Shown one piece after another: positions 2,190 to 21,515 of a stretch of 64,000 bases of DNA. Location: assembly GCA_015062115.1 (NCBI GenBank), contig SUVG01000007.1:1-64000 (forward strand), in the 5' to 3' direction. The translations under genes and the position numbers were made by a program. The stretch comes from Elusimicrobium sp. Lineage in GTDB: Bacteria; Elusimicrobiota; Elusimicrobia; Elusimicrobiales; Elusimicrobiaceae. The notes beneath the pieces are model-generated. The model did no database searches, was not told where the DNA came from, and saw only the letters and a program-made list of their open reading frames with translations. The stretch's first letter is position 1. Each line of letters starts with the position of its first letter.

Positions 2190-2307
2190 GTTAATATCCC
2201 CTCTTAAAAATAGGGGCAAAAGACCCACCTGTTCCTAGGTAGTAAGACCTATTTTTTATGAAGAAGAGCGTGGCTATTTTTTTATGTCGGGCATCTATAG
2301 AATTTAC

Positions 2308-2313: not shown

Positions 2314-2319
2314 ATAATT

Positions 2320-3540: not shown

Positions 3541-3578
3541 AAAGATATAATAAATTAAAATACGCTAGGAGACAAAAA

Positions 3579-3797
3579 ATGAGAGGAATTATTTTTGCGC
3601 TTTTAACTTTTGTAGTCGGGGGGCTTATCGGGCTCGGTTTGGAAAAACTGGCCGGTATGCTCGGCGGTGAAATCGGCAGCGCGCTGACCCGCGTTTACGG
3701 CATCGGTATTCACCCGATTTCCTTGCACATTACCATTTGCGGAGCCATTGGTTTGGTGCTGGGATATTTGATTATTGCTAAATTTGTAAAGAAATAA
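3579..3797 (+). CDS. Small membrane protein, DUF4321-like
   Basis: This 72-residue protein has two hydrophobic segments (about residues 3-22 and 47-68) separated by a short loop with GIGIHPISLHITICG. Size and layout match DUF4321 proteins, which in many bacteria sit just before maf, as here (1 nt between this stop and the maf start). Function is unknown; the position suggests co-expression with maf and trxB. A TAGGAG ribosome binding site precedes the ATG, and TATAAT at 3546-3551 could be the promoter for the three genes. Confidence 0.6.
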   Translation: MRGIIFALLTFVVGGLIGLGLEKLAGMLGGEIGSALTRVYGIGIHPISLHITICGAIGLVLGYLIIAKFVKK

Positions 3798-3798
3798 T

Positions 3799-4353: not shown

Positions 4354-5278
4354 TGACCGAAACCGATTTGTTAATTATTGGAGCCGGGCCCGCAGGTTGC
4401 AGTGCGGCTATTTATGCCGTGCGCGCGGGGGTGAAAACCGTTATTGCCGGCGGAGCGGCCCCCGGAGGGCAACTGTTGCAAACCAGCGATATTGAAAACT
4501 ATGCCGGGTTTGTAAATCCTGTCGGCGGGTTTGAAATTATGGACGCCATGCACAAACAATGCAAACGCTTGGGGGTGGAATTTACCACGGATCAAGTGGT
4601 AAAAATCGAAGGCGAAAAAACACCCTTTACCGTTACTTGCGAAGGAGGAAAAACCTATCAAGCCAAAAGTATTGTGATTGCTACGGGTGCCAAAGCGCGT
4701 TGGCTGGGCCTTGCCGAAGAAGAAAAATTTAAGGGGCATGGTCTTTCTGCCTGTGCCACGTGCGACGGATTTTTTATGCGCGGTAAAAGCGTGTGCGTGG
4801 TAGGGGCGGGAACACGGCTTTTGAAGATGCGCTCTTTCTTTCCCAATTCTGCCCGAAAGTGTATTTAGTACACCGCCGTGATGCTTTCCGTGCCGACCAA
4901 GTAACGGTAGAAAAAGTAAAAAATACACCCAATATCGAACTGGTACTCAACAGCGTGCCCGCCCAACTGTTGGGGACGGACGCAGTAGAAGGCCTGAAAG
5001 TAAAAAATGTTCAAACGGGGGAAGAGAAGGAGTTGGCTTGCTCCGGCGTGTTTGTGGCTATCGGTGCCGTACCGCAGACGGATTTTTTGAAAGATTCTTT
5101 GGTGGCTCTGGCCGATAACGGCCTGGTGTTAGCCGACGAACGCACCCACACCACTTTGGAAGGAATTTTTGCCGCGGGTGATTGTGCTGACAAGTATTAT
5201 CGCCAAGCCATTATTGCCGCGGGTTCCGGGGCGAAGGCCGGCATAGAGGCGGCGGCTTTTGTAAACCTGCATCGTTAG
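4350..5278 (+). pseudogene. trxB: Thioredoxin reductase with single-base frameshift
   Basis: The first frame (4350-4868) holds the FAD-binding GAGPAGCSAA motif and the redox CATC centre (C135, C138). It then loses frame inside the NADPH-binding GxGxxA motif: the reading VVGAG-TRLLKM should be VVGAG-NTAFED. The correct frame resumes at once and runs to 5278 through VHRRDAFRAD and the FAD-binding GIFAAGDCAD. Three Gs at 4808-4810 where four would restore the frame explain it. The joined protein would be about 309 residues, normal for TrxB. Either this is a real inactivation or an assembly error in a G run. TrxB reduces thioredoxin with NADPH. The gene overlaps maf by 4 bp and has AAGGAG upstream. 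Confidence 0.85.
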
Positions 5279-6919: not shown

Positions 6920-8083
6920 TTAACGGTTGCGTAGTTGCCGCACAATTTCGTCTATCGTGTCCGTCAGTTTTCGGTATTCATCTGTTCCGTTTACATCTAC
7001 AAAAGGAAAGCAGGCTATACGAAGAGAATTTTGCAAAACGGTCTTATATTTTTTCACGCCGTCGGCCAAATTTGGTAAACCGGTGGCCTGCAGGGCGGCG
7101 GAAATGTCGGTATCGCGCAACGAAGGGTCGGTAATTTGCAAGGTAAGTGTGGTAAAAGAGCGGAAGGCCTCTTGTTCTATCAAGGGTTTCAGATAGTCCG
7201 TTTTCGCGGCCCAACGGAGCAGAAAATCGGCATGTTGTTTACAGAGTTTTTCCATGGCGTTTAGGCCCCCGTGCGCGTTCATCCAGTTGCAGGCTTCATT
7301 TAACATATACAAATTGGTATTGCAGGGAGTGTTAACGGTTTGCACTTTTTCGCGGGCTAATTGGGCGGCTTGTTTTAAGTCCAAAATGTACGGTACGGTG
7401 CGATAGTCGGTTGTTTCTTCCAAGCGTTGCGCGGCCTTAGGGCTGAGAATAATTACACTCGTTCCGCCGCCTGCTCCAAAACATTTTTGCAAGGAAAAAA
7501 CCATCACATCAAATTTGTTTGACGGCAACACGCGTCCGCCCACGCACGAAGTGGTATCCCAAGCAATCAGGGTGTCTTTGCCGCGTAAGTTCCAAGCATT
7601 TTCCAAGTATTCGTCAGGTATTTGAACCCCGGTGGAAGTTTCGTTGGGGGTGAGGAGCACCAAACTGGCATTGAAATCGGGTTTTTCCTTTGGGAAGAAG
7701 GCTCCTTCTTCGGGCGTGCGGATAGAACGGTGTACCGTCGGCCCTAAACGCGTGGCCAGTTTTTCGTTCCATAAATGGGAAAAGGCCCCGAAGGCAAGCC
7801 CTGAAATGGAATCTTTGGTTAAGTTCCACACAACGGCATCTAACGCGACGGTTGCTCCGCCGGGGAAGAAGATAACGGTGTAATCTTGCGGCAGGCCCAA
7901 AAGAAGGCGCAAATTGTCGGTCGTTTGTTTATAAAGCCCGTCGGTAGAAATATCGGCGGCGCGGTGGCTTCGTTCAAAAAAAGTTTTGTGTAACGGGGTT
8001 TGGCGCACGGCCTCTAACCCTTGGCTGGGGCCGCAGGCGAAGGTAACGGATGGTAATTGCTTGGGGTCTAAGGCTATTTTCAT
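6920..8083 (-). CDS. serC: Class V aminotransferase, phosphoserine aminotransferase-like
   Basis: The 387-residue PLP enzyme has the SerC arrangement: an N-terminal CGPSQGL segment, EELLGLP-like LLLGLPQDY, FPGGAT, DTTSCVGGR, and the PLP lysine in SLQKCFGAGGG (K200). SerC moves an amino group from glutamate to 3-phosphohydroxypyruvate in serine synthesis (and also serves pyridoxal phosphate synthesis). The segment after the lysine differs from textbook SerC, so another class V substrate is possible. It is transcribed alone and has an AAGGAC ribosome binding site. No serA or serB lies nearby, but cysE at 36958 would use the serine. Confidence 0.75.
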   Translation of the reverse strand: MKIALDPKQLPSVTFACGPSQGLEAVRQTPLHKTFFERSHRAADISTDGLYKQTTDNLRLLLGLPQDYTVIFFPGGATVALDAVVWNLTKDSISGLAFGAFSHLWNEKLATRLGPTVHRSIRTPEEGAFFPKEKPDFNASLVLLTPNETSTGVQIPDEYLENAWNLRGKDTLIAWDTTSCVGGRVLPSNKFDVMVFSLQKCFGAGGGTSVIILSPKAAQRLEETTDYRTVPYILDLKQAAQLAREKVQTVNTPCNTNLYMLNEACNWMNAHGGLNAMEKLCKQHADFLLRWAAKTDYLKPLIEQEAFRSFTTLTLQITDPSLRDTDISAALQATGLPNLADGVKKYKTVLQNSLRIACFPFVDVNGTDEYRKLTDTIDEIVRQLRNR

Positions 8084-8138
8084 AAAGTCCTTCTGTGCCG
8101 TGTGATTTTATTATTTTAGCAAAACTGAACAATAAAAG

Positions 8139-8166
8139 GGCGGGTTCCCCGTGAAAAGAACCCGCC
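8139..8166 (-). terminator. Rho-independent terminator of lexA
   Basis: GGCGGGTTC (8139-8147) pairs perfectly with GAACCCGCC (8158-8166). Read on the minus strand the stem is followed by TTTTATT. A second GC-rich hairpin (CCGGG/CCCGG near 8190-8206) lies between it and the lexA stop and has no assigned role. Confidence 0.7.
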
Positions 8167-8233
8167 TTGAGGTTACGACTAATTACCCCGGGTTCGGCTC
8201 CCGGAGCCAGCAGAAAGCGTATGTAGAACGGTT

Positions 8234-8842
8234 TTAGCAATTAAAACTGCGCTTAATAATACTGCGCACAATGCCTTCCACGCGGAACGAATCGCGGTCT
8301 GCCACTATCGGGTTATAGGAAGGGTTTTCGGACTGTAAAATCACATTTTCGCCGTCCTGCGTAAAACGCTTTACCATTACTTCGCCGTTGTTAACGCATA
8401 CAACCACATCTTTATTTTGGGGTTGGTGGCTTTGCTCTACAATCAGCCAATCGTGCGGAGCAATCAGGCTTTCCATGGAATTGCCCTTGGCTTCCACCAT
8501 AAAACCTTTGCAGGCGGGAAAATAAATCATGCTGGGGTCCACGGGCACGATACGGGTGGGGGTGCCGTCCAAAATAGTCCCTTCGGGGCCGCATTTGGCC
8601 ATGCCGTACATTTTAAGATAAATTACATTTCTTTCCGGGTCTTTTAAGATAATGTAATCGCGCGGGTTGGCCGGGTTGCGCTTTAGATAACCCTTTTTTT
8701 CTAACTGTTTAATGTGATGAAAAACCACACTTTTTCCGCTTACATTGAGGCGTTCTGCCAGTTCTTCCATGGTTAGCGGATCGGAAATATGGGTGCGTAA
8801 AATTTCCAACAATTCGGTTTGTTTGGGGTGTAACGCTTTCAT
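8234..8842 (-). CDS. lexA: LexA family SOS repressor
   Basis: The 202-residue length and layout match LexA. An N-terminal winged helix is followed by the S24 self-cleaving domain. The scissile bond falls at Cys84-Gly85, the same position as Ala84-Gly85 of E. coli. The catalytic Ser122 is in GNSMES and Lys158 in VMVKRF. RecA-stimulated self-cleavage would relieve repression of DNA-damage genes. AAGGAG precedes the ATG. Two sets of GTTC half-sites lie upstream (8869-8888 and 8964-8989) and probably mediate autoregulation. The Cys-Gly cleavage pair is unusual for LexA but used by related S24 proteins. Confidence 0.88.
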   Translation of the reverse strand: MKALHPKQTELLEILRTHISDPLTMEELAERLNVSGKSVVFHHIKQLEKKGYLKRNPANPRDYIILKDPERNVIYLKMYGMAKCGPEGTILDGTPTRIVPVDPSMIYFPACKGFMVEAKGNSMESLIAPHDWLIVEQSHQPQNKDVVVCVNNGEVMVKRFTQDGENVILQSENPSYNPIVADRDSFRVEGIVRSIIKRSFNC

Positions 8843-8868
8843 TTTGTCATCTCCTTTGTTTTGTTTCC

Positions 8869-8888
8869 GTTCTATACTATGTTCTATA
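8869..8888. promoter_or_regulatory. Candidate LexA operator, GTTC direct repeat
   Basis: GTTCTATA occurs at 8869-8876 and again at 8881-8888, an exact 12-bp period (GTTC-N8-GTTC), about 27 bp upstream of the lexA ATG. On the minus strand this overlaps a TATAGA -10-like sequence. Confidence 0.55.
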
Positions 8889-8963
8889 ATTTTTTATTAA
8901 AAAAGTAAAGACAATTTTGAAAACATATAAAATATAAGCATTTTTTATTTTAAGAATTATTTT

Positions 8964-8989
8964 ATTTGTTCTATATAAGTAGAACAAAT
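8964..8989. promoter_or_regulatory. Perfect 10-bp inverted repeat, candidate LexA operator
   Basis: ATTTGTTCTA (8964-8973) and TAGAACAAAT (8980-8989) are perfect inverted arms around six bases. They use the same GTTCTA half-site as the direct repeat nearer lexA. The site lies between lexA and the pilin cassette at 9085. Confidence 0.6.
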
Positions 8990-9084
8990 CAGTTGAAAAA
9001 TAACGCGTTTTATGCTTTTTTGAAAGGGGCCGCCCGGTGGGGGAAAAGGTAGTTTTTGTTAATAAAAGAAAGAGAAAAATGAAA

Positions 9085-9183
9085 AGACTTGACCCGTTTT
9101 TTTGTTACAATGTACCTAATCGGCAGGCAGGAAGAACTGAAATGTTGCTTGTTTGCTGAAAACCAGTTTATAAGAGGTTTTGT
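9085..9183 (+). promoter_or_regulatory. Pilin promoter-leader cassette, copy B
   Basis: TTGACC (9089-9094), a seven-T tract and TACAAT (9106-9111) are present, but the spacer is only 11 nt. In the leader, CGGCAGGCA (9120-9128) can still pair with TGTTTGCTG (9149-9157): three C-to-T changes all give G-U pairs. AAGAGG precedes the ATG. The CTCG-N-CGAG element of the other copies is absent. Confidence 0.65.
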
Positions 9184-9702
9184 ATGAAAAAGGGTTTTAC
9201 TTTGATAGAACTTTTGGTTGTAGTGCTAATTATTGGTATATTGACAGCGGTGGCTCTTCCGAAGTATCAAGTGGCGGTTGGGAAAGCACAGGCTATTGGT
9301 ATTATTCAGAGGTTAAATTCTATTAATAAAGCCCAGCAACTTTATTATTTGGCTAATGGGGCATATGCAACTGAGTGGGAAGATTTAGATATAGACTTAC
9401 AGGGACATACTGTTTCTCACAACAGAAATCTATATTTTTCAGATAACAGTTATTGTATTCCAATGCCAACGGGGCTTAATTCGGCTCGGTGTTATATTGG
9501 CTCTAAGAAAGTTGTTTCATATCTAAAACTGGAAATTTATTTTGCACCTCAAACATTTACCAAGAATAAAAAAATAGAATGTGGTGCTTTGCCTGATGAA
9601 CCATTGGCACAAAAAATTTGTAAAGCGTTGATTTTAGATCATAGCATCACCCAATCGGATTGTGGCTCTGCTGTGTGTAATTATACTTTAGAAAAATACT
9701 AA
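9184..9702 (+). CDS. Type IV pilin-like protein
   Basis: The 172-residue prepilin has the MKKGFTLIELLVVVLIIGIL signal and transmembrane helix, with expected cleavage after Gly4. The head domain carries several Cys residues (YC, RC, EC, QKIC and a final CGSAVC). The first 60 bases of coding sequence are almost identical to those of the pilins at 127 and 46502, while the heads diverge, pointing to recombination or selection on the N-terminus. It is monocistronic, with the cassette promoter before it and a strong terminator after. Partner proteins are unknown. Confidence 0.9.
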   Translation: MKKGFTLIELLVVVLIIGILTAVALPKYQVAVGKAQAIGIIQRLNSINKAQQLYYLANGAYATEWEDLDIDLQGHTVSHNRNLYFSDNSYCIPMPTGLNSARCYIGSKKVVSYLKLEIYFAPQTFTKNKKIECGALPDEPLAQKICKALILDHSITQSDCGSAVCNYTLEKY

Positions 9703-9712
9703 TAATCTAAAT

Positions 9713-9742
9713 AAAAAACCCCCGATTTTCGTCGGGGGTTTT
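9713..9742. terminator. Bidirectional terminator between pilin and Pal-like gene
   Basis: AACCCCCGA (9717-9725) pairs with TCGGGGGTT (9732-9740), with A and T runs outside on both strands. Confidence 0.85.
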
Positions 9743-9759
9743 GTTTTTGTAATACAAAC

Positions 9760-10338
9760 TTAGTTGTTGGTGATTTCCAATTCCACGCGGCGGTTTTGAT
9801 AGCGGCCCGCGGCGGTTTTGTTGGTGGCAACCGGGTTGGCTTCGCCGTAACCGATGAAGGTTACATTTTTTGCCGGTACGCCGTCTCTTACCAATTCCAT
9901 GGCAACCGCTTTGGCACGGCGTTGGGAAAGGTCAATGTTGTAGTTGGCATCACCGTACGAATCGGTATAGCCGGCTACGCGCACTTTGGCGTTGGGGTAT
10001 TTTTTCAAAGCATCAGCCGTCTTTTTGATTTGATCCAAAGAAGATTCGGCGATAACATCGCTGTTGTAATTGAAGTTAATCGGTTCTTTATAGGAAAGAA
10101 CGGTTCTGCCGGCGGTTTGGGTTTTTACGGAAGCCACTTCGGCAAAATCTTTTTCTTCTACGGCTTTGGGGGCCGGTTTTTCAGCCGGTTTGGCGGCTTC
10201 TTTTTTGACAGGTTCTTGTTTTACGGTTTCTTTGGCCGCGGGTTTAGCGGCGGTGGTGTTGCATTTGGTGCAGGTGTTCGTGCAGTGGCAGGCACCCAAG
10301 AACAAAGCACCCATTAAAACGACGGCTACTTTTTTCAT
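9760..10338 (-). CDS. OmpA/Pal-family peptidoglycan-associated lipoprotein
   Basis: The 192-residue lipoprotein has a LGAC lipobox with acylated Cys17, a Lys/Ala/Pro/Glu-rich linker (about residues 30-65) that probably spans the periplasm, and a C-terminal OmpA domain. The OmpA domain has the peptidoglycan-binding pattern GYTDSYGDANYNIDLSQRRA. It would tie the outer membrane to peptidoglycan. Oddly, three more Cys (19, 23, 26) follow the lipid-bearing Cys in a short C-x-C-x3-C-x2-C cluster that could bind metal or form disulphides. No tol genes are adjacent. An AGGAGA ribosome binding site precedes the ATG. Confidence 0.85.
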   Translation of the reverse strand: MKKVAVVLMGALFLGACHCTNTCTKCNTTAAKPAAKETVKQEPVKKEAAKPAEKPAPKAVEEKDFAEVASVKTQTAGRTVLSYKEPINFNYNSDVIAESSLDQIKKTADALKKYPNAKVRVAGYTDSYGDANYNIDLSQRRAKAVAMELVRDGVPAKNVTFIGYGEANPVATNKTAAGRYQNRRVELEITNN

Positions 10339-10378
10339 TTTTGCTTTCTCCTGTTGAGTCTCACTTTCTATTCTAATT

Positions 10379-10876
10379 CTACAATATTCTACACTCGGGT
10401 GTTCCCTTTTTTTTCATTAAAGCCCGATACAATAAATAAACGGGTTTTTGAAGTTTGGGGTGCACATACTCCGGCAGAATATAAGAAAGGGGTTTTAATA
10501 CAAATTCCCGCTCGTGCAAACGCGGGTGGGGGATAAAGAGCATATACTCGTCATCATCTTCAAAGACGATTTGGTCGTCATAAAATAAAATATCCAGGTC
10601 AATCACGCGCGGCCCGTCCTTAAAAGTAGGTACGCGGCCCAGTTTGGTTTCCAGGGCTTTTAATTTTTTAAGTAAATCGAGCGGTTTGTACGGCGTACTT
10701 AAAATCAGCACCGTATTTACAAAATCGGGTTGGTTGGGGAACCCTTCGGGCTTGGACACAATGTAGGGGGCCACCTCTTTAACGGTGCCCAAATCGGCCA
10801 GGGCTTTTACGGCGCGGTCTATATTTTCTTTGGCGGGAGCAATGTTGCTTCCCAAAGCAAGAACGGCTTGAGCCAT
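10379..10876 (-). CDS. folK: 2-amino-4-hydroxy-6-hydroxymethyldihydropteridine pyrophosphokinase
   Basis: The protein is about 165 residues from the ATG at 10876, with GAGGAG just upstream; an ATG 36 nt earlier is inside the preceding gene. HPPK motifs are present: LALGSNI at the N-terminus, the FVNTVL strand, and DGPRVIDLDILFYDD with the two Mg-binding Asp residues, then IPHPRLHEREFVLKPL. It uses ATP to pyrophosphorylate hydroxymethyldihydropterin for FolP. It is the last gene of the DUF1189-queD-queE-folE-folP-ptpS-folK operon; its start lies just before the stop of the PTPS gene. Confidence 0.93.
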   Translation of the reverse strand: MAQAVLALGSNIAPAKENIDRAVKALADLGTVKEVAPYIVSKPEGFPNQPDFVNTVLILSTPYKPLDLLKKLKALETKLGRVPTFKDGPRVIDLDILFYDDQIVFEDDDEYMLFIPHPRLHEREFVLKPLSYILPEYVHPKLQKPVYLLYRALMKKKGTPECRIL

Positions 10877-10877
10877 A

Positions 10878-11228
10878 TTATTCTTCTCCTCTGTATTCAA
10901 TCCAGCGGTCACTTTCTTCGGCTACTTTTACGCTGTACACAAAAGGGAACTTCGCCTGTACCCGTTCAAACAACCAAATGGCCAAGGTTTCGGTAGTCGG
11001 GTTGGAAAATAAAGAGTTCAAATCGGCATGGTGCAAGCGGGTATTTATTTTATGTGTAAAAAAATCTTGTAATACCCGAAAATCAATTAAATATCCTTCC
11101 TCGTTTAAGGGGCCGTGGAAGGTAATTTCGTAGTGAAAATTATGCTCGTGAGAGGCTTCCGCCAAGGTGCCGCCGTGTCCGTGGCGGGCGGCAAACTGAC
11201 CGCACTGGGTAAGATAAACTTTTTTCAT
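10878..11228 (-). CDS. PTPS-III-type 6-pyruvoyltetrahydropterin synthase paralogue (FolB substitute)
   Basis: The 116-residue T-fold protein uses the ATG at 11228, where GGAG lies upstream. Zinc His residues are kept (AARHGH and H27, H29). The catalytic Cys of QueD/PTPS is missing, and Glu24 sits three residues before His27, giving the E-x-x-H-x-H signature of PTPS-III. This group is known to cleave the dihydroneopterin side chain and replace dihydroneopterin aldolase (FolB). The gene lies between folP and folK, and no folB is in the operon. A true QueD is encoded separately at 13139, so this copy is unlikely to make queuosine. Confidence 0.8.
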   Translation of the reverse strand: MKKVYLTQCGQFAARHGHGGTLAEASHEHNFHYEITFHGPLNEEGYLIDFRVLQDFFTHKINTRLHHADLNSLFSNPTTETLAIWLFERVQAKFPFVYSVKVAEESDRWIEYRGEE

Positions 11229-12019
11229 TTTGAAGACTCCAATTCTTGGTAAAAATTGATGATTTTGCGTGTCTCTTTTACGTCGTGCACACGCAGAATA
11301 TCGGCCCCGCCTTGCAAGGCCACTAAATTGGCGGCCAATGTTTGGGCTTTGCGTTTGGGGGCGCCTTCGCACTTTTGGCTTAAAAAGGTTTTTCGCGAGA
11401 GACCCGCAAGCATTTGTACGCCCAGTTCTTTGAACTCGCTCAGATGCTTTAAGAGTTGGTAATTTTGCGCGCGTGTTTTGGCAAAACCAAAACCCACATC
11501 AATAATAATTTGCTCTTTGGTAAGGCCGAATTTTTCGGCTTGGGCAATTTTAGCGGCGAGAAAAGTTTTTACTTCGCCGATTAAATCTGCATAGTCGGTA
11601 TGTTCCTGCATGGTTTGCGGCGTTCCGCGCGTGTGCATGAGCACAATTTGGGCCTTAAAATCTTTAATCAGTCGGAACATATCCGTGTCGGGCGTACCGC
11701 TGACATCATTGATGATGCATATGCCCTGCTTGAGCCCTTGCTCGGCCACGGGAAGTTTTACCGTATCTAAAGAGAGGGGAATTTTCGGCCAATTCTTTTT
11801 TGCAGCCGTAATAACCGGGAGCACGCGGGAAAGTTCTTCTTCGGCGGATACGGGGGTTGCCCCCGGGCGGGTAGATTCTCCGCCGATATCAAGCATATCG
11901 GCCCCGCTTTGCACATATTCCTGGCACTTCGCTACCAGGGCCGGCAGGTTATTTTGCGGGTTTCCGTCAAAAAAAGAATCGGGCGTGGCATTTACAATGC
12001 CCATGAGTTTTGCGGTCAT
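11225..12019 (-). CDS. folP: Dihydropteroate synthase
   Basis: The 264-residue TIM-barrel enzyme has the DHPS signatures MGIVNATPDSFFDG near the N-terminus and DIGGESTRPGA. The pterin-binding IINDVSG and the C-terminal ILRVHDVKET are also present. It condenses hydroxymethyldihydropterin pyrophosphate with p-aminobenzoate. It lies 6 nt after folE and overlaps the PTPS-III gene by 4 nt at its end, so coupling is likely. Residues 60-80 are the family's usual sulfonamide-interaction loop; nothing unusual is visible. Confidence 0.95.
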   Translation of the reverse strand: MTAKLMGIVNATPDSFFDGNPQNNLPALVAKCQEYVQSGADMLDIGGESTRPGATPVSAEEELSRVLPVITAAKKNWPKIPLSLDTVKLPVAEQGLKQGICIINDVSGTPDTDMFRLIKDFKAQIVLMHTRGTPQTMQEHTDYADLIGEVKTFLAAKIAQAEKFGLTKEQIIIDVGFGFAKTRAQNYQLLKHLSEFKELGVQMLAGLSRKTFLSQKCEGAPKRKAQTLAANLVALQGGADILRVHDVKETRKIINFYQELESSK

Positions 12020-12025
12020 AAAAGA

Positions 12026-12646
12026 TTATTTAATCATTTCCAAAAATTCACTGCGAACTTCCAACTTTTTGAACGCGCCGCGAATAGCACTGGTTACCAT
12101 AACGGCGTTGTGTTTTTCGATACCGCGGGAACTGATGCACATATGCTTGGCTTTGCATACCACCATCACACCGTGCGGCTCCAAGGTTTCCATTAAGCTG
12201 TCGGCAATTTCCGCCACCAGTTTTTCTTGGATTTGCAAGCGCCTTGCGAACACTTCCACCAAACGGGCCAATTTGGATATACCGAGCACGCGGCCTTTGG
12301 GTAAGTAGCCAATGCTGATGGTGCCGAAGAAAGGTTGAAGGTGGTGTTCGCAGGTAGAATAAAATTCAATATCTTTCAGGACGACCATTTCTTCGCAAGA
12401 ACCTTCCGTAAAGGTTTTAAGCACATCTTGCGGTTTCATTTTGTAACCGCCGTAAAGTTTTTTCCAACTGCGTAAAATGCGGTGGGGGGTTTCCAATAAA
12501 CCTTCGCGGGCCGGATCGTCGCCGATATAGGCTAAAATTTCGCGCAGATTATTTAGAATTTTTTCTTCGGTTAACGAATGTTTATCAGTTTGTGCGTTTG
12601 CAGGCTTAACCGCGCGGCGGGATGTTTTTTTAACAGTTTTACGCAT
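12026..12646 (-). CDS. folE: GTP cyclohydrolase I
   Basis: The 206-residue protein contains the FolE signature: the zinc ligands in STCEHHLQPF and in VVCKAKHMCISSRG, then VTSAIRGAF. It converts GTP to 7,8-dihydroneopterin triphosphate. In this operon that product feeds both QueD (queuosine) and the PTPS-III/FolK/FolP route (folate). A basic N-terminal tail of about 25 residues (RKTVKKTSRRAVK) is extra. The ATG at 12646 overlaps queE by 76 bp, but AGGAG lies 10 nt before it and supports this start. Confidence 0.95.
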   Translation of the reverse strand: MRKTVKKTSRRAVKPANAQTDKHSLTEEKILNNLREILAYIGDDPAREGLLETPHRILRSWKKLYGGYKMKPQDVLKTFTEGSCEEMVVLKDIEFYSTCEHHLQPFFGTISIGYLPKGRVLGISKLARLVEVFARRLQIQEKLVAEIADSLMETLEPHGVMVVCKAKHMCISSRGIEKHNAVMVTSAIRGAFKKLEVRSEFLEMIK

Positions 12647-13164
12647 AGGGCTATATTCTCCTGTAAGTTACTTTCGGGTTGTAGATAAATTTGTGTTTTG
12701 TCGTTTTCGTAATTATAGTATTTTTCCAAATCGGCAAGGTCGGTTTCTTGGCCTACTACGATTTTGATAACATCGGCCTTTTTCAGCATTTCCTGGCTGA
12801 CATATTTTTTGGGCGAAACGCAGACAAAATCTGCCCGGCTTACATCGCAATCGTGCGCGCCGTTTGTTTCCAAGTGGACGCAATATCCGGCCGATTTTAA
12901 GGCGGCAATGAGGGAGGGCAAATCTTGTTCGGCAGGTTCTCCGCCCGTAATTACCACCGTTTTGCAGGGGTATTCGGCCAAGGCCACAAGCACTTGCAGG
13001 GAGTTCATTTCTTCCCCTGTTTGGAAGGCGTATTTGGTATCGCAAAAAGAACAACCCATGGTGCAACCTGCTAGACGCAAAAATACGGCGGGCATACCGG
13101 TATGGCGGCCCTCGCCTTGGATAGAATAGAAGATTTCGTTAACCTTCCACGATGGCTGCGGCAT
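12571..13164 (-). CDS. queE: 7-carboxy-7-deazaguanine synthase
   Basis: The 197-residue radical SAM enzyme has its [4Fe-4S] cluster Cys at 34, 38 and 41 (CTMGCSFC, followed by DTKYAF as in QueE). FYSIQGEG at the N-terminus and VITGGEP are also typical. It converts 6-carboxy-tetrahydropterin to 7-carboxy-7-deazaguanine in queuosine synthesis. It overlaps queD upstream by 26 bp and folE downstream by 76 bp. The C-terminal LSLQTHKLINIR matches the family end, so the long overlap with folE is real coding on the queE side. Confidence 0.93.
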   Translation of the reverse strand: MPQPSWKVNEIFYSIQGEGRHTGMPAVFLRLAGCTMGCSFCDTKYAFQTGEEMNSLQVLVALAEYPCKTVVITGGEPAEQDLPSLIAALKSAGYCVHLETNGAHDCDVSRADFVCVSPKKYVSQEMLKKADVIKIVVGQETDLADLEKYYNYENDKTQIYLQPESNLQENIALCVKLLKKHPAARLSLQTHKLINIR

Positions 13165-13483
13165 TGTCGCTCTCCCAAATTTCCAAGGTTTTAAGCGTTA
13201 AATTCATTTGGGCGAGTTCCGCTCCGATTTTTTGGAACAGAAACTGGGCCAAGTTTTCCGCGGTGGGGTTTTCTACCCAGTCGTTTAAGAGTTGATGGTC
13301 GGGCAGGTTTTCGTCCAATAATTTTTTGATTACTTTGAAATCGCATACCATACCGTCTTCTTTTACGGGCCCTTCAATGACAAAAACGGCTTTCCAGGTA
13401 TGTCCGTGCAAATCGTGGCAGGGGCCGTCGTAATGCGGAAGGCGGTGGGCCGAACTAAAAGAACGAATCAGTTTAATAAGCAT
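13139..13483 (-). CDS. queD: 6-carboxy-5,6,7,8-tetrahydropterin synthase
   Basis: The 114-residue T-fold protein has complete QueD residues: zinc His13 in SSAHRLPHYDG, catalytic Cys22, and His26/His28 in CHDLHGH. A DFKVIK segment and the late PTAENLA are also family hallmarks. It makes 6-carboxytetrahydropterin from dihydroneopterin triphosphate, the step before QueE. It overlaps queE by 26 bp and starts 1 nt before the DUF1189 stop. The intact C-x3-HGH motif contrasts with the PTPS-III copy at 10878 and separates the two roles. Confidence 0.93.
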   Translation of the reverse strand: MLIKLIRSFSSAHRLPHYDGPCHDLHGHTWKAVFVIEGPVKEDGMVCDFKVIKKLLDENLPDHQLLNDWVENPTAENLAQFLFQKIGAELAQMNLTLKTLEIWESDNAAAIVEG

Positions 13484-14280: not shown

Positions 14281-14835
14281 CTACTTGGCTTGGCAAGAAA
14301 CGTCCGCGCCTAAAAAGAAAAATTGATTTTTCTTAAACACGCACGAAAGTTTTTGGGAACGGGGCGAGCCCGAAGGGGCATCGGGAAGAGATTTAAGGCA
14401 GGCAATGCGGGTGCAGGAATAGGTTTCCGCGCATTGGGTAAAAGAGGAAGACGGATAGTTGGCAATAAACCAGGAAAAGTCCAAATTGTATTTTAATTCT
14501 TGTAAAAAATTTTCACAGGTAAGGGTGTCGAACGGGCAGGAGGGCTCGGCGGTTGTGTTTTCTTCGGTCAATTTTTCATCCAACAGGGTGTAGCGTTCTT
14601 GAGCTATCGGGGTTCCTTGCACAAGGTATACATCAAAACATGAGAAGTCTTCCCCGTTGTTTTTGCTGCAGGTAAAAGGTTTTAGGATATCATGCCCGAG
14701 GCAGGTATCCTCCACCAACGAAGCATCAACCGACAGATACTGCGGTGTTTGGCGTACTGTTTTTAGTTTTGGGGAACTTCCTGCTAAATAAAAAGTTCCC
14801 AACAGGCAACACAAAATAAGTAAATTTTTTTTCAT
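14281..14835 (-). CDS. Secreted cysteine-rich protein of unknown function
   Basis: The 184-residue protein starts with a signal peptide (KKNLLILCCLLGTFYLAGSS). The mature part contains about ten Cys residues spread over its length (for example DTCLGHD, DFSCFDV, PSCPFDTLTCENF, TYSCTRIACLK and two near the C-terminus). This suggests a disulphide-stabilised periplasmic or surface protein. I recognise no family. AGAAGG precedes the ATG at 14835. It is transcribed alone between the pterin operon and the divergent PAS gene. Confidence 0.6.
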   Translation of the reverse strand: MKKNLLILCCLLGTFYLAGSSPKLKTVRQTPQYLSVDASLVEDTCLGHDILKPFTCSKNNGEDFSCFDVYLVQGTPIAQERYTLLDEKLTEENTTAEPSCPFDTLTCENFLQELKYNLDFSWFIANYPSSSFTQCAETYSCTRIACLKSLPDAPSGSPRSQKLSCVFKKNQFFFLGADVSCQAK

Positions 14836-15020: not shown

Positions 15021-18000
15021 ATGTCTAATAAATTATTTTCGTTTTTTTCTAAAGATGCCGAACCGACTACCGAACCCGTTAAAACCCTAACCCCGGAGAT
15101 GTATGCCTTTTTGGAGCATTTCCCCACAGCTGTGCTTTTATTGGAAAACAGCGGTAAAATCGTTTTTGCCAATATGGCTGCATCGGCTTTACTGCGCACG
15201 AAAGTTTCCGCTCTTACTTCTTCCACGGTAGATCGTTTCGGCCTTACCATGACCCAGGTGCGTTCTATGACAGACGCCCAAAACCCTCAAAAAATGGTGC
15301 ATGAAGTGGTAACTACGGATGCCGATTCCCTGACGGTCAGCGTAGGGGCCACCATTTTGGCTTCCACGCCGTTTATCATGCTTACCTTGGAAGATGTTCC
15401 TCATTTTCAGCAACTAAAAGAAGAAAAGGCCTTCTTTGCCTCTATCTTAAATAAAGAGCCGCAAGCGATAGTGGTGCAAAACTTTGCCGGCATCTGCGTA
15501 TTTTGGAACAAACACGCGGAAGAACTTTTCGGCCATAAAGTCGAACAGGTGGAGGGCAAATCTATTTACGACTTATTGCCCAAAGAAATGGAGCAAGCCG
15601 TCCGCCGTTTAGACGAAGAACTCCGCAAAAAACAGGAATCTCGCCGTGATGTGCAGTTTTCTTGTAAAAAAGAAGACGGGAAAGACCGGGTGCTTTCCGT
15701 GGATAAAGAGATTATTCCCGGCCCGGACGGAAAACCGCGCTACATTTTAAGCCTGTTTGACGATGTAACGGAGCGTAGCGAAAAGGAGCATGTGTTGTCT
15801 CAAAAACAAATTTTGTTGCAGGCTATTTTGGACAACGTCCCCTTAGGGCTTTACACACGCGACAACAAAGGTGTGATGACCTACTTTAACAAGCAAAGCA
15901 TGAAGGTGCTTAACGAAGCAGACCCCACCCGCACGGATAAACCCCATGCCTTGCAATCGCCCGACCAAGTGGAATTTCACCGCATACGCGAAGCGCAAAT
16001 TTTGCAAGAAGGTAAACGCCGCGATTTTCCGGAAGAGATATATACGGACGCGGAAGGCAACAAAATTATCCTGCACATGATTAAAGTTCCGTTGTGGGAC
16101 GCGGGCCCGAACCCGGTAGTGCTGACCATTGTGGAGGATATCACGGCGCGCCGCTTGCAAGAAAAAGAAATCAAGCGCGTAAACGGCCTTCTCTCCGCTA
16201 TTCTGCAAAATGCTCCGATGGGCTTGTATGCGCGCACGGCGGACGGCCGCATGTTGTTACGCAACCGCAAATGTGCGGATTTGTTTGGGGAAGAAACGGA
16301 ATCCGCTTTTGATTCTACCGGTAAACTCCCGCACGAAACAGAGGAACAGGTAAATGCGTATGTAGCCCGTGAGCAGGAACTGTTGAGAAGCGGACAAATC
16401 ATTGATATTCCCGAGGAACCTTATGTTACTGCCGCCGGAGAAGAACGCCTGCTCCACCTCATTAAAGTTCCCGTAAAAGAAGAATCCGGGCAAGAATCGT
16501 TTGTGGTAACCATGGTGGAAGATGTAACGGAAAAACGTGCGCAAGAACGCAGTTTGATTGAAACCAAGAACTCTCTGCAAACTATTTTGGAATATGTGCC
16601 TGTGGCCATTTATGCCCGCAAAGTGGACGATACGCTTTGCTACATTAACCGCCGCGCGCATGAAATTTTCCCGGACGAAAGAGAATATGTCGCCAAGGAC
16701 GACTTCTACGGACAACGCGAGAAAAACATCTTCAAAGAAGGGAAAGTGTTGGAATTCCCGGAAGAGTGGTACACCACCTTGCGCGGGGATAAAATTTTGT
16801 TACACCTCATCAAAGCCCCTGTATTTGATAAAGAAGGAAACCCCTTCATGGTGCTGACCGTAGCGGAAGACATTACCGAGAAAAAGCAACAGGAAAAAGC
16901 CATCGTGGATGCCAAAAACTTCCTGCAGACGGTTATTGACCAATTGCCTCTTTCGTTGTCGGTTAAAAACTACGACGGTAAATATATCTTATGGAACAAG
17001 AAAAGTGAAGACTTGTTCGGTGTAGGTGCGGCGGATGTAATCGGTCGTACCTCTTATCGGGCCGATATCAACAGGGAGCAAGCGGAATTTTTGCGCGAAT
17101 CGGACTTGCGTGTGTTTGAAAACAAAAAAGAGCAGGATATCCCGCAAGAACTTATTTCTACCGCTGCTGACGGCGTAAAAATTATGCATACCGTTAAAAC
17201 CCCGGTGTTTAATTCGGACGGCACCCCGAACTGCTTGCTTGTCGTGTCTGAAGATATCACCGCCAAAACCCGCATGGAAAAACAGATTCGCGAAGCAAGC
17301 GATAAAAATACACTCTTGGTAGAAAACGCGCGGGAAGGGATTGTTATTTTAGATGACGGAAAAATTATTTACACCAACCGCGCCTTCTGCCATATTTTAG
17401 GTTACGAAGACCCCGCGGATATCAAAGGCCAAGCCCTGCTGGACTTTGCCGCAGAAGACCACCGCCCCTTCCTTAAGGATAAATGTGATTCCGTCTTGGC
17501 CGGGGCGGATAACGCCTCCAACGCCATGGAAGTACATTTTGTAAAGAAGAAAGGAGGCGAGGTAGAGGCCGAGTTTGCCGCCGTTGCCAGCAAATACCTG
17601 GGCCGCCGTATTACCCTGTGCTTCGTGCGCGATGTAACCACCTCCAACCGTATGCTGCGCGATATGAAGACGGAGCGCGAATCGTTGCGTTCGGCGTTCG
17701 AAAAGAGCATCACCCCGTCTTTTATCCTTTCCAGTAAAGGTTATATTACGGTAATGAACGAAGCCTGCCGCAATTTGTTCGGTTTTACGGAAACAGACAA
17801 AAAGTTCTACCGCAATGTGTATATCAAACCGGCGATTCGCCTGGCGGTTCGCAAGAATCTCAAAATGGGTCAGCCCGCTCAAATGGACTATACCTTTGAT
17901 TTCGAACGTGCCGCAGAAAAATTCCCCGGCCGCATTGAAGGAACGGGCCAACTGCATCTTTTGGCCAATTTTGTGCCGATAAACAAGCGCGATACCAAGG

Positions 18001-20138
18001 ATGGCACGGTAGAAGCAGACTACATTGTTTTTTTAGAGAAAAAGGAACCGAAGGACGAGCCTGAACCGCCCTCCTCGGTACCTCCTGCGCCTAAACCCCC
18101 GGTTGCCCCGGTTGAAGAACCCAAAGCACCGGTCGTTTTACCACCTCCACCGCCGGAAAAGCCCCAACAAGCGCCGGCGGCGCTTTCTTCTCACGCACGG
18201 GAAACTTTAGTGCTCCCCAACAGCGAGCCCTATGCGCTTTGCTCCAAAGATTTCAAAATACTTTCCTGCAACGCGCTTTTTCGTTCTTTGTGCCAACTGG
18301 AAGAAAACGAACTGATCGGTCAGCCGATTATGTATGTTTTCCATAGCGATTTTCAAGCAGCTCTTACGCAAGATTTATTCACTCTTTCTGCGGACGGGGC
18401 TATTTCCAACCGGGAATACCGGCTTAACCTGGCCAGCGGGTTGGAAAGCACTTCCGTCCGGGTCAGCGCGGTAAAGGAAGCGGACGGGCGGTATTTGTTT
18501 GTGTTGCGCAATTTGGCTTTTCATCAGCAAATTATGCGTATTTTGGAAGAACGCTCCGCTCAACTCAATGCTTTATTGGAAGCGACGGACGGCATTGTTT
18601 TTTCCGTTTGGTTTGAAAAAGACCGTTTCGGCCAAATTGAACAAGCCAATAAATTTCTTTCCCGCAAACTGGGCTATTCGCACGAAGAATTGGTGCGGAT
18701 GTCTTTTGCCGATCTCTTTACAAACGGGGAAGGGGCGGCTGCTAACCCGGCCCAAGTATTAGCCCAAGCAGAAGGGGAACTTGCCTCTCATGGCAAAACT
18801 TCCTTCCGCTTGCCGGTGCGTAAAAAAGACGGCGAAGTGTTTGAAGCACAAGTGATGCTTAGCGCATTGGATCTCCCTTCCAAAGATGCCGCTTTGGTAA
18901 TTATTTACGATCTTTTCCAGCAACTCGACCGTGTGGCCAAAGATTCCAAAGAAGCCAAAGAACTCAAATGTGTCCGCCAAGCGTTGCCGGGGTTGTACTT
19001 AAAAACGGATAGCGAAGGGTTGGCCTTGGAAGTATATTCCAATTTAGATTATTTGGATAACGAACAAACGCAGGATATCTTTTTGGACAGATTCCCCGGT
19101 CAGTATTGGTCTGCGGAAACTGCTTCGCGGGCACTTTTTGCCATTAAAGAGGCGTTGTCTATCAATGTGAGTACTCGGTTTGAATTTGAGTGGGAAGTAT
19201 CCGGTAAGGTTCGCTATTACGAAGTACTTGTTACACCTATTTCCGGGTGCGGAGAAGCGGTACTGTGGATAAAAGATGTATCGGGCAAACACGCCTATGA
19301 CGAAAAAGTGCACGAACTTTACCGCATTACACGCGAACCGGGCCTTTCCCTTACCGAACAGGTGGAAAAGATTTTGGCTTTCGGGCGTAAAATTTTCCGC
19401 AGTGATGTGGGGCTGGTGTTGCGTTTCCACAAAAATCGGGAGCAGTTGGAAAGTATGGTGGCATATGCTACCAAAAACGATTTGCATTTAGAACGCCATA
19501 TGGAGTTTGCCGTAGAAGAGTGCTTGACCGATGTAGCCGACGGAAATGTAGTGTTAATTTCCGACGGGGAAGCCCTTTCCTGTACGCGTTGTTTGCACAA
19601 AGCCAAAGGGTTAAATGCTCTTTTAGCCGCTCCTTTATATATGGGGGGAAAGGTTACCGGGGCGCTTTGTTTTGCTTCTCAGGAACCGTGCCGCAATTTC
19701 CCGGAAGGAGCCGAGGAGTTAATCGGCATTATGGCGCGCATTTTAAGCCTTCGTTTGGAACTGCGCCAAACGGGTAAAATGTTAAGCGAAGCCTCGCGTT
19801 CCTTGGCAAAAACCCTGGAATATGTGGAAATGCCGGCTGTTATTATTGGGCTTGACTATCATGTCACCTTTGTAAACCATGCCATGTTGCGCATTACCGG
19901 CAGACGAACGAGTAATATGTTAGGGAGAGATTTTTTCGAAGAAGTTATTCGCAATGATGACCTTTCTAAACAAATGTTCAAGGCGGCGGAAAAATCTTCT
20001 ACCGCGCAGGCTTTCCAAGTGCGGTTAGATTTACTGCGCGAAAATGGTCTCTACGAAGATACTCCGTGGGACGTTTTTGTGTGCAAAAATGCAGAGGGGA
20101 AAGTGGACGGTTATGCTTTAATAGCCTCTGCTGTATAA
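15021..20138 (+). CDS. Giant multi-PAS/GAF sensory protein without visible output domain
   Basis: The product has 1705 residues and no signal peptide or transmembrane segment. About twelve PAS folds can be delimited. Eight run from residue 25 to 1010; repeats 3-6 share a PEE-Y-T-x-x-G-x-K-x-L-H-x-I-K-x-PV block and end in V-x-x-V-x-EDIT linkers. A Pro-rich linker lies at 1013-1060, three PAS at about 1070-1430, a GAF domain at about 1440-1590 and a last PAS to the end. There is no histidine kinase, GGDEF, EAL, receiver, phosphatase or methyl-accepting domain. It could be a ligand- or redox-sensing scaffold acting through partners. It is monocistronic. Confidence 0.85.
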   Translation: MSNKLFSFFSKDAEPTTEPVKTLTPEMYAFLEHFPTAVLLLENSGKIVFANMAASALLRTKVSALTSSTVDRFGLTMTQVRSMTDAQNPQKMVHEVVTTDADSLTVSVGATILASTPFIMLTLEDVPHFQQLKEEKAFFASILNKEPQAIVVQNFAGICVFWNKHAEELFGHKVEQVEGKSIYDLLPKEMEQAVRRLDEELRKKQESRRDVQFSCKKEDGKDRVLSVDKEIIPGPDGKPRYILSLFDDVTERSEKEHVLSQKQILLQAILDNVPLGLYTRDNKGVMTYFNKQSMKVLNEADPTRTDKPHALQSPDQVEFHRIREAQILQEGKRRDFPEEIYTDAEGNKIILHMIKVPLWDAGPNPVVLTIVEDITARRLQEKEIKRVNGLLSAILQNAPMGLYARTADGRMLLRNRKCADLFGEETESAFDSTGKLPHETEEQVNAYVAREQELLRSGQIIDIPEEPYVTAAGEERLLHLIKVPVKEESGQESFVVTMVEDVTEKRAQERSLIETKNSLQTILEYVPVAIYARKVDDTLCYINRRAHEIFPDEREYVAKDDFYGQREKNIFKEGKVLEFPEEWYTTLRGDKILLHLIKAPVFDKEGNPFMVLTVAEDITEKKQQEKAIVDAKNFLQTVIDQLPLSLSVKNYDGKYILWNKKSEDLFGVGAADVIGRTSYRADINREQAEFLRESDLRVFENKKEQDIPQELISTAADGVKIMHTVKTPVFNSDGTPNCLLVVSEDITAKTRMEKQIREASDKNTLLVENAREGIVILDDGKIIYTNRAFCHILGYEDPADIKGQALLDFAAEDHRPFLKDKCDSVLAGADNASNAMEVHFVKKKGGEVEAEFAAVASKYLGRRITLCFVRDVTTSNRMLRDMKTERESLRSAFEKSITPSFILSSKGYITVMNEACRNLFGFTETDKKFYRNVYIKPAIRLAVRKNLKMGQPAQMDYTFDFERAAEKFPGRIEGTGQLHLLANFVPINKRDTKDGTVEADYIVFLEKKEPKDEPEPPSSVPPAPKPPVAPVEEPKAPVVLPPPPPEKPQQAPAALSSHARETLVLPNSEPYALCSKDFKILSCNALFRSLCQLEENELIGQPIMYVFHSDFQAALTQDLFTLSADGAISNREYRLNLASGLESTSVRVSAVKEADGRYLFVLRNLAFHQQIMRILEERSAQLNALLEATDGIVFSVWFEKDRFGQIEQANKFLSRKLGYSHEELVRMSFADLFTNGEGAAANPAQVLAQAEGELASHGKTSFRLPVRKKDGEVFEAQVMLSALDLPSKDAALVIIYDLFQQLDRVAKDSKEAKELKCVRQALPGLYLKTDSEGLALEVYSNLDYLDNEQTQDIFLDRFPGQYWSAETASRALFAIKEALSINVSTRFEFEWEVSGKVRYYEVLVTPISGCGEAVLWIKDVSGKHAYDEKVHELYRITREPGLSLTEQVEKILAFGRKIFRSDVGLVLRFHKNREQLESMVAYATKNDLHLERHMEFAVEECLTDVADGNVVLISDGEALSCTRCLHKAKGLNALLAAPLYMGGKVTGALCFASQEPCRNFPEGAEELIGIMARILSLRLELRQTGKMLSEASRSLAKTLEYVEMPAVIIGLDYHVTFVNHAMLRITGRRTSNMLGRDFFEEVIRNDDLSKQMFKAAEKSSTAQAFQVRLDLLRENGLYEDTPWDVFVCKNAEGKVDGYALIASAV

Positions 20139-20229: not shown

Positions 20230-21468
20230 ATGAAGAAATTTATCTTATTGGGTGCCGCGCTGTTTGCGTGTGGTGCCTTGTACGCGGAGAGTATGCAATT
20301 TGTAACCTTGCTTTCTTCTCCGTTAGGAACCTTCAGCCGTTTGGAAACGGCTGACCCTGCTGTTGCTACAAGAAGTCAATTTGTTAACTTTGGTACTACC
20401 AAGGTAGGGACGGGCCAAATCGATTTGGTAAAAAAAGCCCCCAGTATTAAATTCCTTCACTTAGCGTCCGGAACGACCCTGAGTAGTGGTAATTTGGCGG
20501 CCTATTATACTACGGGCCGTTTTGAAATTGGGCCCGGGGGCACCGTAACGGGGAAATCTCTTTTAGCGACGAGTTTATCCTATAAAGGATCGACTAGTGC
20601 CAAAAGTGAAGTAAGCGGAACATTAACGCTTGCGAATACCGGTAAGTTTGTTGGCGGCTATGCAGGGTCTATGATTCTCGGAAAAGCCAAAACGGTTGCA
20701 AGCCGGCCCGACAATGTAGGCCTTGATATGCACTGGAGTAACATCCATAAATGCGAGGCTTATAAAACGGATGGGACATGTCCTACCGGGAAGGAAAGCA
20801 CTTATGCTAAATCTTTTGTACTTAAGAGCAAAGCCTCTTTTGATGCTCCCTGCGGAGAAGGGCCGAAAGGTGCAAGTTATACGGACTTTTGTCCTACAGG
20901 CCAAACCGGCTCTATTACTATGACTTGGGACACAGGTCTCTGTGCATATAAAGAAACAAAAAACACCTGTAAAAATACTAAAAAGAGATGCTTAACCAAA
21001 CGCAGATGGTGTAAACTGTTGGATGTCGGTACCGGGGCATTAAATAGCGGCGCATATAATGAAGATACGCTTACCGATTGTAGCGATCTTAAAAGGGGTT
21101 TTGGCCACTTGAATGGTTGTGCTGTTGCTATTGGTATGTATGGCGGAGATGATTTTAACAGCACTTTTAAGCAAGTTCCTATGGGGTGTTCTTGGGGGCA
21201 GGAATGTGATTCCTGTGAGTTAAATGCCTACTATGCCAGTAGTTCTAATGGTGTTTACTGCGCTACTTGTAAAAATATGATGCAGTATGCGTATGGGCCG
21301 GGTAGCGTAAGAACCCTCTATAATGTGGCTTATGCTGTCTGTACGGAATTGGACGACTGTGCGGAAGGCGAGGAAAGAACAGACTGTTGGGATATTGGAA
21401 GTGGTTCTAATTCGGATGTTCCGATAGATGTTCCTTTAACGCCTGTTCCTATGGATCCGAACTTGTAG
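20230..21468 (+). CDS. Secreted protein with Cys-rich C-terminal half
   Basis: The 412-residue protein has a clear signal peptide (KKFILLGAALFACGALYAES). Residues 20-160 are Ser/Thr/Gly-rich, β-strand-like and free of Cys. Residues about 170-400 hold 18 Cys, including C-x2-C in YCATCK and C-x2-C in ECDSC, and a basic NTKKRCLTKRRWCK stretch. It ends in a Pro/Asp tail. The pattern suggests an exported surface or matrix protein with many disulphides; no known family is recognised. AAGGAG precedes the ATG, and a strong terminator follows at 21482. Confidence 0.65.
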   Translation: MKKFILLGAALFACGALYAESMQFVTLLSSPLGTFSRLETADPAVATRSQFVNFGTTKVGTGQIDLVKKAPSIKFLHLASGTTLSSGNLAAYYTTGRFEIGPGGTVTGKSLLATSLSYKGSTSAKSEVSGTLTLANTGKFVGGYAGSMILGKAKTVASRPDNVGLDMHWSNIHKCEAYKTDGTCPTGKESTYAKSFVLKSKASFDAPCGEGPKGASYTDFCPTGQTGSITMTWDTGLCAYKETKNTCKNTKKRCLTKRRWCKLLDVGTGALNSGAYNEDTLTDCSDLKRGFGHLNGCAVAIGMYGGDDFNSTFKQVPMGCSWGQECDSCELNAYYASSSNGVYCATCKNMMQYAYGPGSVRTLYNVAYAVCTELDDCAEGEERTDCWDIGSGSNSDVPIDVPLTPVPMDPNL

Positions 21469-21481: not shown

Positions 21482-21515
21482 AAAAAACCCCCTCAAATAC
21501 CGAGGGGGCTTTTAT
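21482..21515 (+). terminator. Rho-independent terminator after Cys-rich secreted protein
   Basis: CCCCCTC (21488-21494) pairs with GAGGGGG (21502-21508), followed by CTTTTATTT, with A6 before the stem. Confidence 0.8.

What the first reader, a model, noticed from the sequence alone, without database searches (positions are those of the whole stretch)
15021..20138. 1705-residue cytosolic PAS/GAF protein without an output module
About twelve PAS folds and one GAF, no kinase, cyclase, phosphodiesterase or DNA-binding part, and no membrane anchor. Four PAS units (about residues 265-755) are clearly recent duplicates. It is monocistronic, with no response regulator nearby. It could be a multi-input sensor that works by protein contact or a ligand store.
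Basis: partly seen in the sequence, partly recalled or inferred. Interest (0 to 1): 0.6.

Follow-up and report, generated by a model that had tools for sequence, protein, structure and literature searches.

The report
Output-less twelve-PAS sensor hub protein
A gut bacterium's genome keeps nearly all of its detectable PAS sensor domains in one giant protein that has no signalling output of its own; the protein is conserved throughout a group of related gut bacteria and probably passes its signal on by touching other proteins.

Summary
The ORF at 15021-20138 encodes 1705 aa: 12 PAS units and one GAF. AlphaFold2 models covering the whole chain (mean pLDDT 82.8 and 86.8) show no cryptic output domain; the chain ends on the last strand of the last PAS. 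Orthologs occur in 86 of 88 genomes of four genera of small-genome Elusimicrobiaceae (49 of 49 near-complete ones), with no full-length match in the other 217 genomes of a phylum search. In this genome all seven PAS_9 hits lie in this protein, while three histidine kinases carry no sensor domain. The gene is probably not monocistronic: an exported-protein gene follows 92 bp downstream, and its homologs lie near the PAS gene in all four genera. A single-copy Cys-rich exported gene is next to it in 49 of 61 congeners that have it. PAS6-7-8 is the core; outer units are lost in some lineages. The GAF carries a near-invariant Cys3-His set, possibly a metal or redox site. Best reading: a sensor hub acting in trans by protein contact, perhaps on sensor-less kinases. 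The partner is unproven.

The parts
15021..20138 (+). 1705-aa output-less 12-PAS/1-GAF protein
   Evidence: orthologs
15021..15074 (+). disordered N-terminal peptide (res 1-18); FSFFSK-like motif in most g1 and in g2 orthologs, a different short peptide in g5
15093..15401 (+). PAS1 (res 25-127)
   Evidence: model; 42% mean identity in the genus set
15435..15776 (+). PAS2 (res 139-252)
15813..16154 (+). PAS3 (res 265-378), paralog of PAS4/5/6
16191..16535 (+). PAS4 (res 391-505)
16572..16883 (+). PAS5 (res 518-621); no clear ortholog in L060, doubled in L057
16920..17267 (+). PAS6 (res 634-749), slowest-evolving unit; MHTVK.P motif in 58 of 60 aligned proteins
17307..17645 (+). PAS7 (res 763-875), core
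17688..18050 (+). PAS8 (res 890-1010), core, with the FYRNVYIKP-like segment; no sequence relative found in PDB
18054..18212 (+). disordered Pro-rich linker (res 1012-1064)
18216..18515 (+). PAS9 (res 1066-1165)
18579..18914 (+). PAS10 (res 1187-1298)
18948..19286 (+). PAS11 (res 1310-1422)
19320..19775 (+). GAF (res 1434-1585) with C1501, C1521, C1524, H1526
   Evidence: Pfam; model; Cys/His counts
19818..20135 (+). PAS12 (res 1600-1705), last fold; nothing follows it
20230..21468 (+). exported Cys-rich protein (412 aa) 92 bp downstream, same strand; its N-terminal family recurs near the PAS gene in four genera
14281..14835 (-). exported Cys-rich 184-aa protein, divergent neighbour; single copy and directly upstream of the PAS gene in 49 of 61 congeners that have it
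   Evidence: no Pfam match
21488..21508 (+). terminator-like stem followed by T run, after the exported-protein gene
   Evidence: consensus scan only

Best explanation
A conserved, lineage-specific sensor hub without an output. SHOWN (sequence and models): 12 PAS units and one GAF in a row, most joined by helices of about 22 residues; no other folded domain; conserved in four genera of small-genome Elusimicrobiaceae; PAS6-PAS7-PAS8 kept in every variant where that region could be read, outer units lost in some lineages; PAS6 by far the most constrained; a near-invariant Cys3-His set in the GAF; the genome's only protein with PAS_9 hits. INFERRED: the protein dimerises through its PAS units and helices; small molecules or redox state are read by several units, with PAS6 the obligatory input and the GAF Cys3-His site a metal or redox input; the resulting change in shape is passed on in trans by contact, through the PAS6-8 core, to separate signalling proteins. 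The likeliest receivers are histidine kinases of the same cell that have no sensor domain (a TM-anchored HK, a REC-HK and a 254-aa HK). The conserved exported-protein neighbours suggest that the controlled process concerns the cell envelope or surface.
For: No output family and no unassigned fold in confident full-chain models. Foldseek hits of the N-terminal model include the trans-acting NifL-NifA complex, though PAS hits are generic. Orthologs in 86 of 88 genomes of g1, g2, g5, g6 and in 49 of 49 near-complete ones (after removing the hits in g3 and g4, of which the loci read are PAS-HisKA-HATPase kinases). In one search, 77 of the 78 genomes with a match are of these genera; the 78th is one weak hit (G178, E 1.4e-23). 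In-frame losses: everything after PAS8 in G023 (1006-aa frame), PAS9-11 and GAF in G037 and in the partial G038, PAS9 in G016, PAS11 in G009; PAS6-8 kept where readable. Mean identity to g2/g5 orthologs: PAS6 58.5%, next PAS5 41.3%, PAS12 22.4%. All 7 PAS_9 hits of the genome are in this protein. Sensor-less kinases are present; an ortholog of the TM-anchored one lies 115 bp upstream of the PAS gene, same strand, in G076.
Against: No partner is demonstrated. The TM-anchored sensor-less HK is near the PAS gene only in G076 (adjacent), G083, G086 and G088 (about 15-17 kb) and G037 (about 9 kb); in the loci read elsewhere it lies with rsmI and yrdC. It is found in only 73 of 88 genomes of the four genera and is missing from near-complete G003, G016, G072, G075 and G085, which keep the PAS protein, so it cannot be an obligate partner. 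The recurrent neighbours are exported proteins, which a cytosolic protein cannot touch directly. Ligands, dimerisation and the metal site are inferred from sequence only.
Confidence: 0.5

Rival explanations
1. Envelope-associated scaffold: the hydrophobic N-terminal peptide attaches the protein to the inner membrane, and the PAS array regulates export or pilus-type machinery that handles the neighbouring exported proteins, without any kinase.
For: A single-copy exported Cys-rich gene is directly upstream of the PAS gene in 49 of 61 congeners having it, on either strand and in two unlike gene contexts. An exported-protein family lies within four genes of it in 14 of 36 inspected loci spanning g1, g2, g5 and g6, cross-checked by a profile trained on the other genera. 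MxNKxFSFFSK-like N-terminus conserved.
Against: No contact or topology data. The N-terminal peptide has a modest hydrophobic moment (0.45 for res 2-12 of the window protein against 0.30 +/- 0.15 for all its 11-mers). The 184-aa neighbour is found only in g1 (0 of 24 other genomes), and the exported family only in part of the g1 and g5 loci.
Confidence: 0.25
2. Remnant of a multi-PAS histidine kinase that lost its kinase and is decaying.
For: Two genera of the same family with larger genomes have multi-PAS histidine kinases (L082, L083). Some lineages have lost outer units.
Against: Nearly all orthologs have an open frame (single stops reported inside listed matches of G057, G034 and G028, and several behind the short form of G023). 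PAS6 is 49-87% identical across four genera. Present in 49 of 49 near-complete genomes of those genera.
Confidence: 0.05
3. Ligand store or buffer: many PAS pockets hold a cofactor or metabolite.
For: Many potentially ligand-binding folds in one soluble chain.
Against: Units are strongly diverged and differ in conservation; outer units are dispensable; a store would favour uniform pockets.
Confidence: 0.05
4. Divergent output domain hidden at the C-terminus or in PAS8.
For: PAS8 has no sequence relative in the PDB.
Against: Model confidence over PAS8 is about 84-97 and all C-terminal units are PAS or GAF folds; the Foldseek PDB list shown is PAS/GAF sensors; G023 lacks everything after PAS8.
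Confidence: 0.05

Closest known systems
NifL (PAS sensor acting by contact on NifA; complex 9qq6)
   Same: PAS-rich soluble protein that acts in trans by protein contact; among the Foldseek hits of the N-terminal model
   Different: NifL has a kinase-like C-terminal part, a known flavin and a known partner (recalled); here there are 12 PAS, a GAF and no kinase-like part
NreA (stand-alone GAF protein acting with the kinase NreB)
   Same: sensor protein without output that belongs with a cytoplasmic kinase; like the proposed way of working (passages of PMC4601167)
   Different: NreA is encoded in an operon with its kinase and is small (recalled); no such gene order here except in G076
PpsR/CrtJ and DosP (multi-PAS proteins)
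   Same: tandem PAS units joined by helices; top Foldseek hits of both models
   Different: PpsR carries an HTH and DosP a phosphodiesterase; neither is present here
Cys-based redox sensors AirS, Chloroplast Sensor Kinase, NreB
   Same: Fe-S sites bound by Cys in sensor parts (passages of PMC4601167 and PMC6949291); the C-x19-C-x2-C-x-H set here is a plausible analogue
   Different: they are histidine kinases; the Cys spacing differs (AirS C-x7-C-x-C-x17-C); no cluster shown here
Multi-PAS histidine kinases of related Elusimicrobiaceae (L082, L083)
   Same: same bacterial family, long PAS arrays
   Different: they end in HisKA-HATPase parts; no match to the three segments tested, res 1-130, 883-1010 and 1065-1702

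Membership tests
PAS domain S-box proteins (TIGR00229 / Pfam PAS families) | PAS folds above curated cut-offs | tested here: met
   several PAS models far above cut-off; 12 PAS folds in the models
Sensor histidine kinase | HisKA and HATPase domains | tested here: not met
GGDEF/EAL/HD cyclase or phosphodiesterase sensor | cyclase or phosphodiesterase domain | tested here: not met
   no such Pfam domain; NCBIfam full-length cyclase/PDE models stay far under cut-off and match PAS stretches only
PpsR/CrtJ regulator | family score and C-terminal HTH | tested here: not met
   TIGR02040 53 bits against cut-off 275; no HTH
NifL | family score and kinase-like C-terminus | tested here: not met
   TIGR02938 52 bits against cut-off 242; no HATPase
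Trans-acting accessory sensor (NreA-like way of working) | sensor without output that binds a partner kinase | not testable with these tools
   first half met; binding could not be tested
Fe-S or metal GAF sensor | conserved ligand residues and a bound metal | tested here: inconclusive
   rows of A4 with a residue there: C1501 59 of 59, C1521 58 of 59, C1524 57 of 59, H1526 58 of 60; no Cys at these positions in g6; no metal shown

The most novel reading that the evidence does not exclude
Genome reduction in gut Elusimicrobiaceae has split two-component sensing: nearly all PAS sensing sits in one output-less hub protein that serves several sensor-less kinases in trans, so that one protein is the shared input of a cell's signalling network.
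Probability: 0.25. Interest if true: 0.75.

Novelty: new variant of a known kind. Interest (0 to 1): 0.5.

Why it matters
If the hub feeds kinases in trans, it departs from the usual plan in which a bacterial sensor and its kinase are fused in one chain, and it offers a compact system (about 1.4 Mb, few kinases, one PAS hub) in which the wiring of signals can be tested. Orthologs in Elusimicrobium, a genus with a cultured species (recalled), make it approachable.

Tried and rejected
Cryptic output domain: rejected by full-length models and the G023 short form. Recent tandem duplication: rejected by unit-by-unit ortholog comparison. Obligate pairing with the TM-anchored sensor-less HK: rejected by its absence from near-complete genomes that keep the PAS protein. 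SlyD-type FKBP as partner: it is near the gene in g1, g2 and g5 loci, but with varying position and strand; not pursued. Pilin genes next to the gene: pilins are scattered everywhere (47 in 19 inspected loci), so adjacency means little. Ligand assignment from PDB sequence relatives: the PAS6 sequence and profile match only a few sensor PAS chains weakly, the GAF sequence and profile give only weak hits, PAS8 none. Literature: searches for Elusimicrobium + PAS domain, output-less PAS proteins, Elusimicrobia + histidine kinase + pilin, Avelusimicrobium, Fe-S GAF kinases, NreA and E. minutum two-component genes were seen as listings only; none of the titles or abstract starts shown describes this protein. 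Passages were read only in PMC6949291 and PMC4601167. The library holds open-licence PMC papers only; the original E. minutum genome paper was not seen.

Rows dropped: seven pattern matches (ankyrin, transporter and other proteins) were judged false by eye before the count 14 of 36 loci; the same profile family also has copies away from the PAS gene (6 matches at E <= 0.01 in this genome, counting the adjacent one). In one search the profile also hit one non-adjacent ORF in L062 and a weak one in L050 (E 0.067), missed L060, and gave one control hit at E 0.12. From the hits in g3 and g4 were dropped as generic kinases.

Full report
WHAT IS THERE. The ORF 15021-20138 (+) codes for 1705 aa. The window is contig C7:1-64000 of a 1.44-Mb, 8-contig genome, 95.6% complete. 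The named relatives, found by two peptide patterns from PAS6, are 68 loci; every title that names an organism group names Elusimicrobia, Elusimicrobiales, Elusimicrobiaceae, Elusimicrobium or Candidatus Avelusimicrobium, and some say only 'uncultured bacterium'.

DOMAINS. Pfam and NCBIfam see PAS and GAF only. AlphaFold2, run on the window protein with 59 orthologs, gives seven PAS units in res 1-882 (pLDDT 82.8) and PAS8, a disordered Pro-rich linker, PAS9-11, GAF and PAS12 in res 883-1705 (pLDDT 86.8). Low pTM (0.39, 0.44) means that the relative placement of units is not known. Foldseek returns DosP, PpsR, FixL, phytochromes, LOV-HK and NifL-NifA, that is, generic PAS/GAF sensors.

CONSERVATION. 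A family-wide search finds a match in 88 of 90 genomes, 51 of 51 near-complete. I dropped the hits in genera g3 and g4: they are weak and partial, and the loci read (L082, L083) are ordinary PAS histidine kinases. The ortholog count is then 86 of 88 in g1, g2, g5 and g6, and 49 of 49 near-complete; the two without it, G027 and G081, are 66% and 64% complete. Several of the 86 are partial matches on contig fragments. A phylum search with the C-terminal profile matches 78 of 294 genomes: 77 in these four genera and one weak partial hit, G178. The profile's rows come from the same genera, so remote relatives could be missed. The genera with it have assemblies of 0.9-1.8 Mb; g3 and g4, without it, have 2.2-2.3 Mb and more kinase candidates (21-22 against 1-11).

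THE REPEATS ARE OLD. Within the protein PAS3/4/5 share 32-37% identity and PAS6 23-29% with them. Between genomes PAS6 finds its ortholog at 49-87% and other units at 20-34%. PAS3, PAS4 and PAS5 each have their own best match within the genus (except PAS5 in L060), but in g5 and g2 two of them can share one best match, so their history between genera is less clear. One lineage lacks a clear PAS5 ortholog (L060) and one has doubled PAS5 (L057).

CORE AND ACCESSORY UNITS. Natural variants show which parts are needed. G023 has a 1006-aa frame with PAS1-8 only; G037 and the partial G038 keep PAS8 and PAS12 but lack PAS9-11 and GAF; G016 lacks a recognisable PAS9, G009 PAS11; in g6 (G089) the units before PAS6 are mostly not recognisable. 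PAS6-7-8 is kept in every variant where that region could be read. PAS6 is the most constrained: 76.8% mean identity in the genus set and 58.5% to g2/g5, against 12.1-41.3% for the other units. The motif MHTVK.P is present in 58 of 60 aligned proteins.

GAF SITE. C1501, C1521 and C1524 are conserved in 59, 58 and 57 of 59 rows with a residue there, and H1526 in 58 of 60; they are missing in g6, and the two g2 rows have Cys in place of the His. Fe-S sites in sensor parts are known for AirS, NreB and CSK (passages in PMC4601167 and PMC6949291). A metal or redox site here is an inference.

NEIGHBOURS. Upstream, divergent, is an exported 184-aa Cys-rich protein. In g1 it is found once in each of 61 of 66 genomes; it lies directly upstream of the PAS gene in 49 of these 61 (32 divergent, 17 same strand, gap 94-293 bp), with one gene between in 3, 103 kb away in 1, and on another contig or without a PAS match in 8, some of which are contig-end cases. 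It keeps this place in two unlike gene contexts. It is absent from the 24 other genomes. Downstream, 92 bp away on the same strand, is an exported 412-aa protein. Relatives of its N-terminal part lie within four genes of the PAS gene in 14 of 36 inspected loci: 5 of 21 in g1, 3 of 3 in g2, 5 of 11 in g5, 1 of 1 in g6. A profile trained without g1 recovers four of the five g1 neighbours, one non-adjacent ORF in L062, one weak hit in L050 (E 0.067), and in eight control loci one hit at E 0.12. The profile spans the signal peptide, which may add to the scores. These links concern exported proteins, so they hint at a surface-related process rather than a physical partner.

KINASES. The genome has six histidine-kinase-type proteins among its HATPase matches, of which three carry no sensor domain: a TM-anchored HK (327 aa), a REC-HK (373 aa) and an HK of about 250 aa (read by eye). 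All seven PAS_9 hits of the genome are in this one protein; one kinase (L045) has a PAS-like stretch by eye that the model did not match. In G076 the ortholog of the TM-anchored kinase (47% identity over 236 columns) lies 115 bp upstream of the PAS gene on the same strand; in G083, G086 and G088 it is about 15-17 kb away and in G037 about 9 kb; in the loci read elsewhere it follows rsmI- and yrdC-like genes (names by eye). It is present in 73 of 88 genomes of the four genera (59 of 66 g1, 2 of 3 g2, 11 of 18 g5, 1 of 1 g6) and missing from near-complete genomes that keep the PAS protein. It is thus a lead, not a partner.

VERDICT. A real, conserved protein with no output found. The most likely way of working is signalling in trans by contact through PAS6-8. 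It is a new variant of a known kind (multi-PAS sensors), confined in these searches to four genera. The partner is the open question.

Noticed in passing
window 10379-13483: Folate/queuosine-type cluster (FolK, QueD-like, FolP, FolE, QueE, QueD; names by eye) with two QueD-like genes, next to the PAS gene in most g1 loci and about 12 kb from it in some g5 loci.
   Followed up: partly
window 20230-21468: Exported Cys-rich protein with an N-terminal 'VTLLSSPLGTFSRLE' segment; a family without Pfam match, 1-13 matches per genome in 89 of 90 genomes of the bacterial family.
   Followed up: partly
L077, directly downstream of the PAS gene (7103-11419): A very long ORF (2826 aa) follows the PAS gene in a g5 genome.
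   Followed up: no
L055-L059, L068, L070, L071, L078, L079: A SlyD-type FKBP peptidyl-prolyl isomerase gene recurs within a few genes of the PAS gene in three genera.
   Followed up: partly
G000:C5:46755-47735 (L162): Histidine kinase without sensor domain behind rsmI- and yrdC-like genes, a gene order seen in g1, g2, g5 and g6 loci.
   Followed up: partly
L182 (G023) 1671-4688: Natural in-frame short form of the protein (1006-aa frame) ending after PAS8, with a pilin-like gene on the other strand right behind it.
   Followed up: yes
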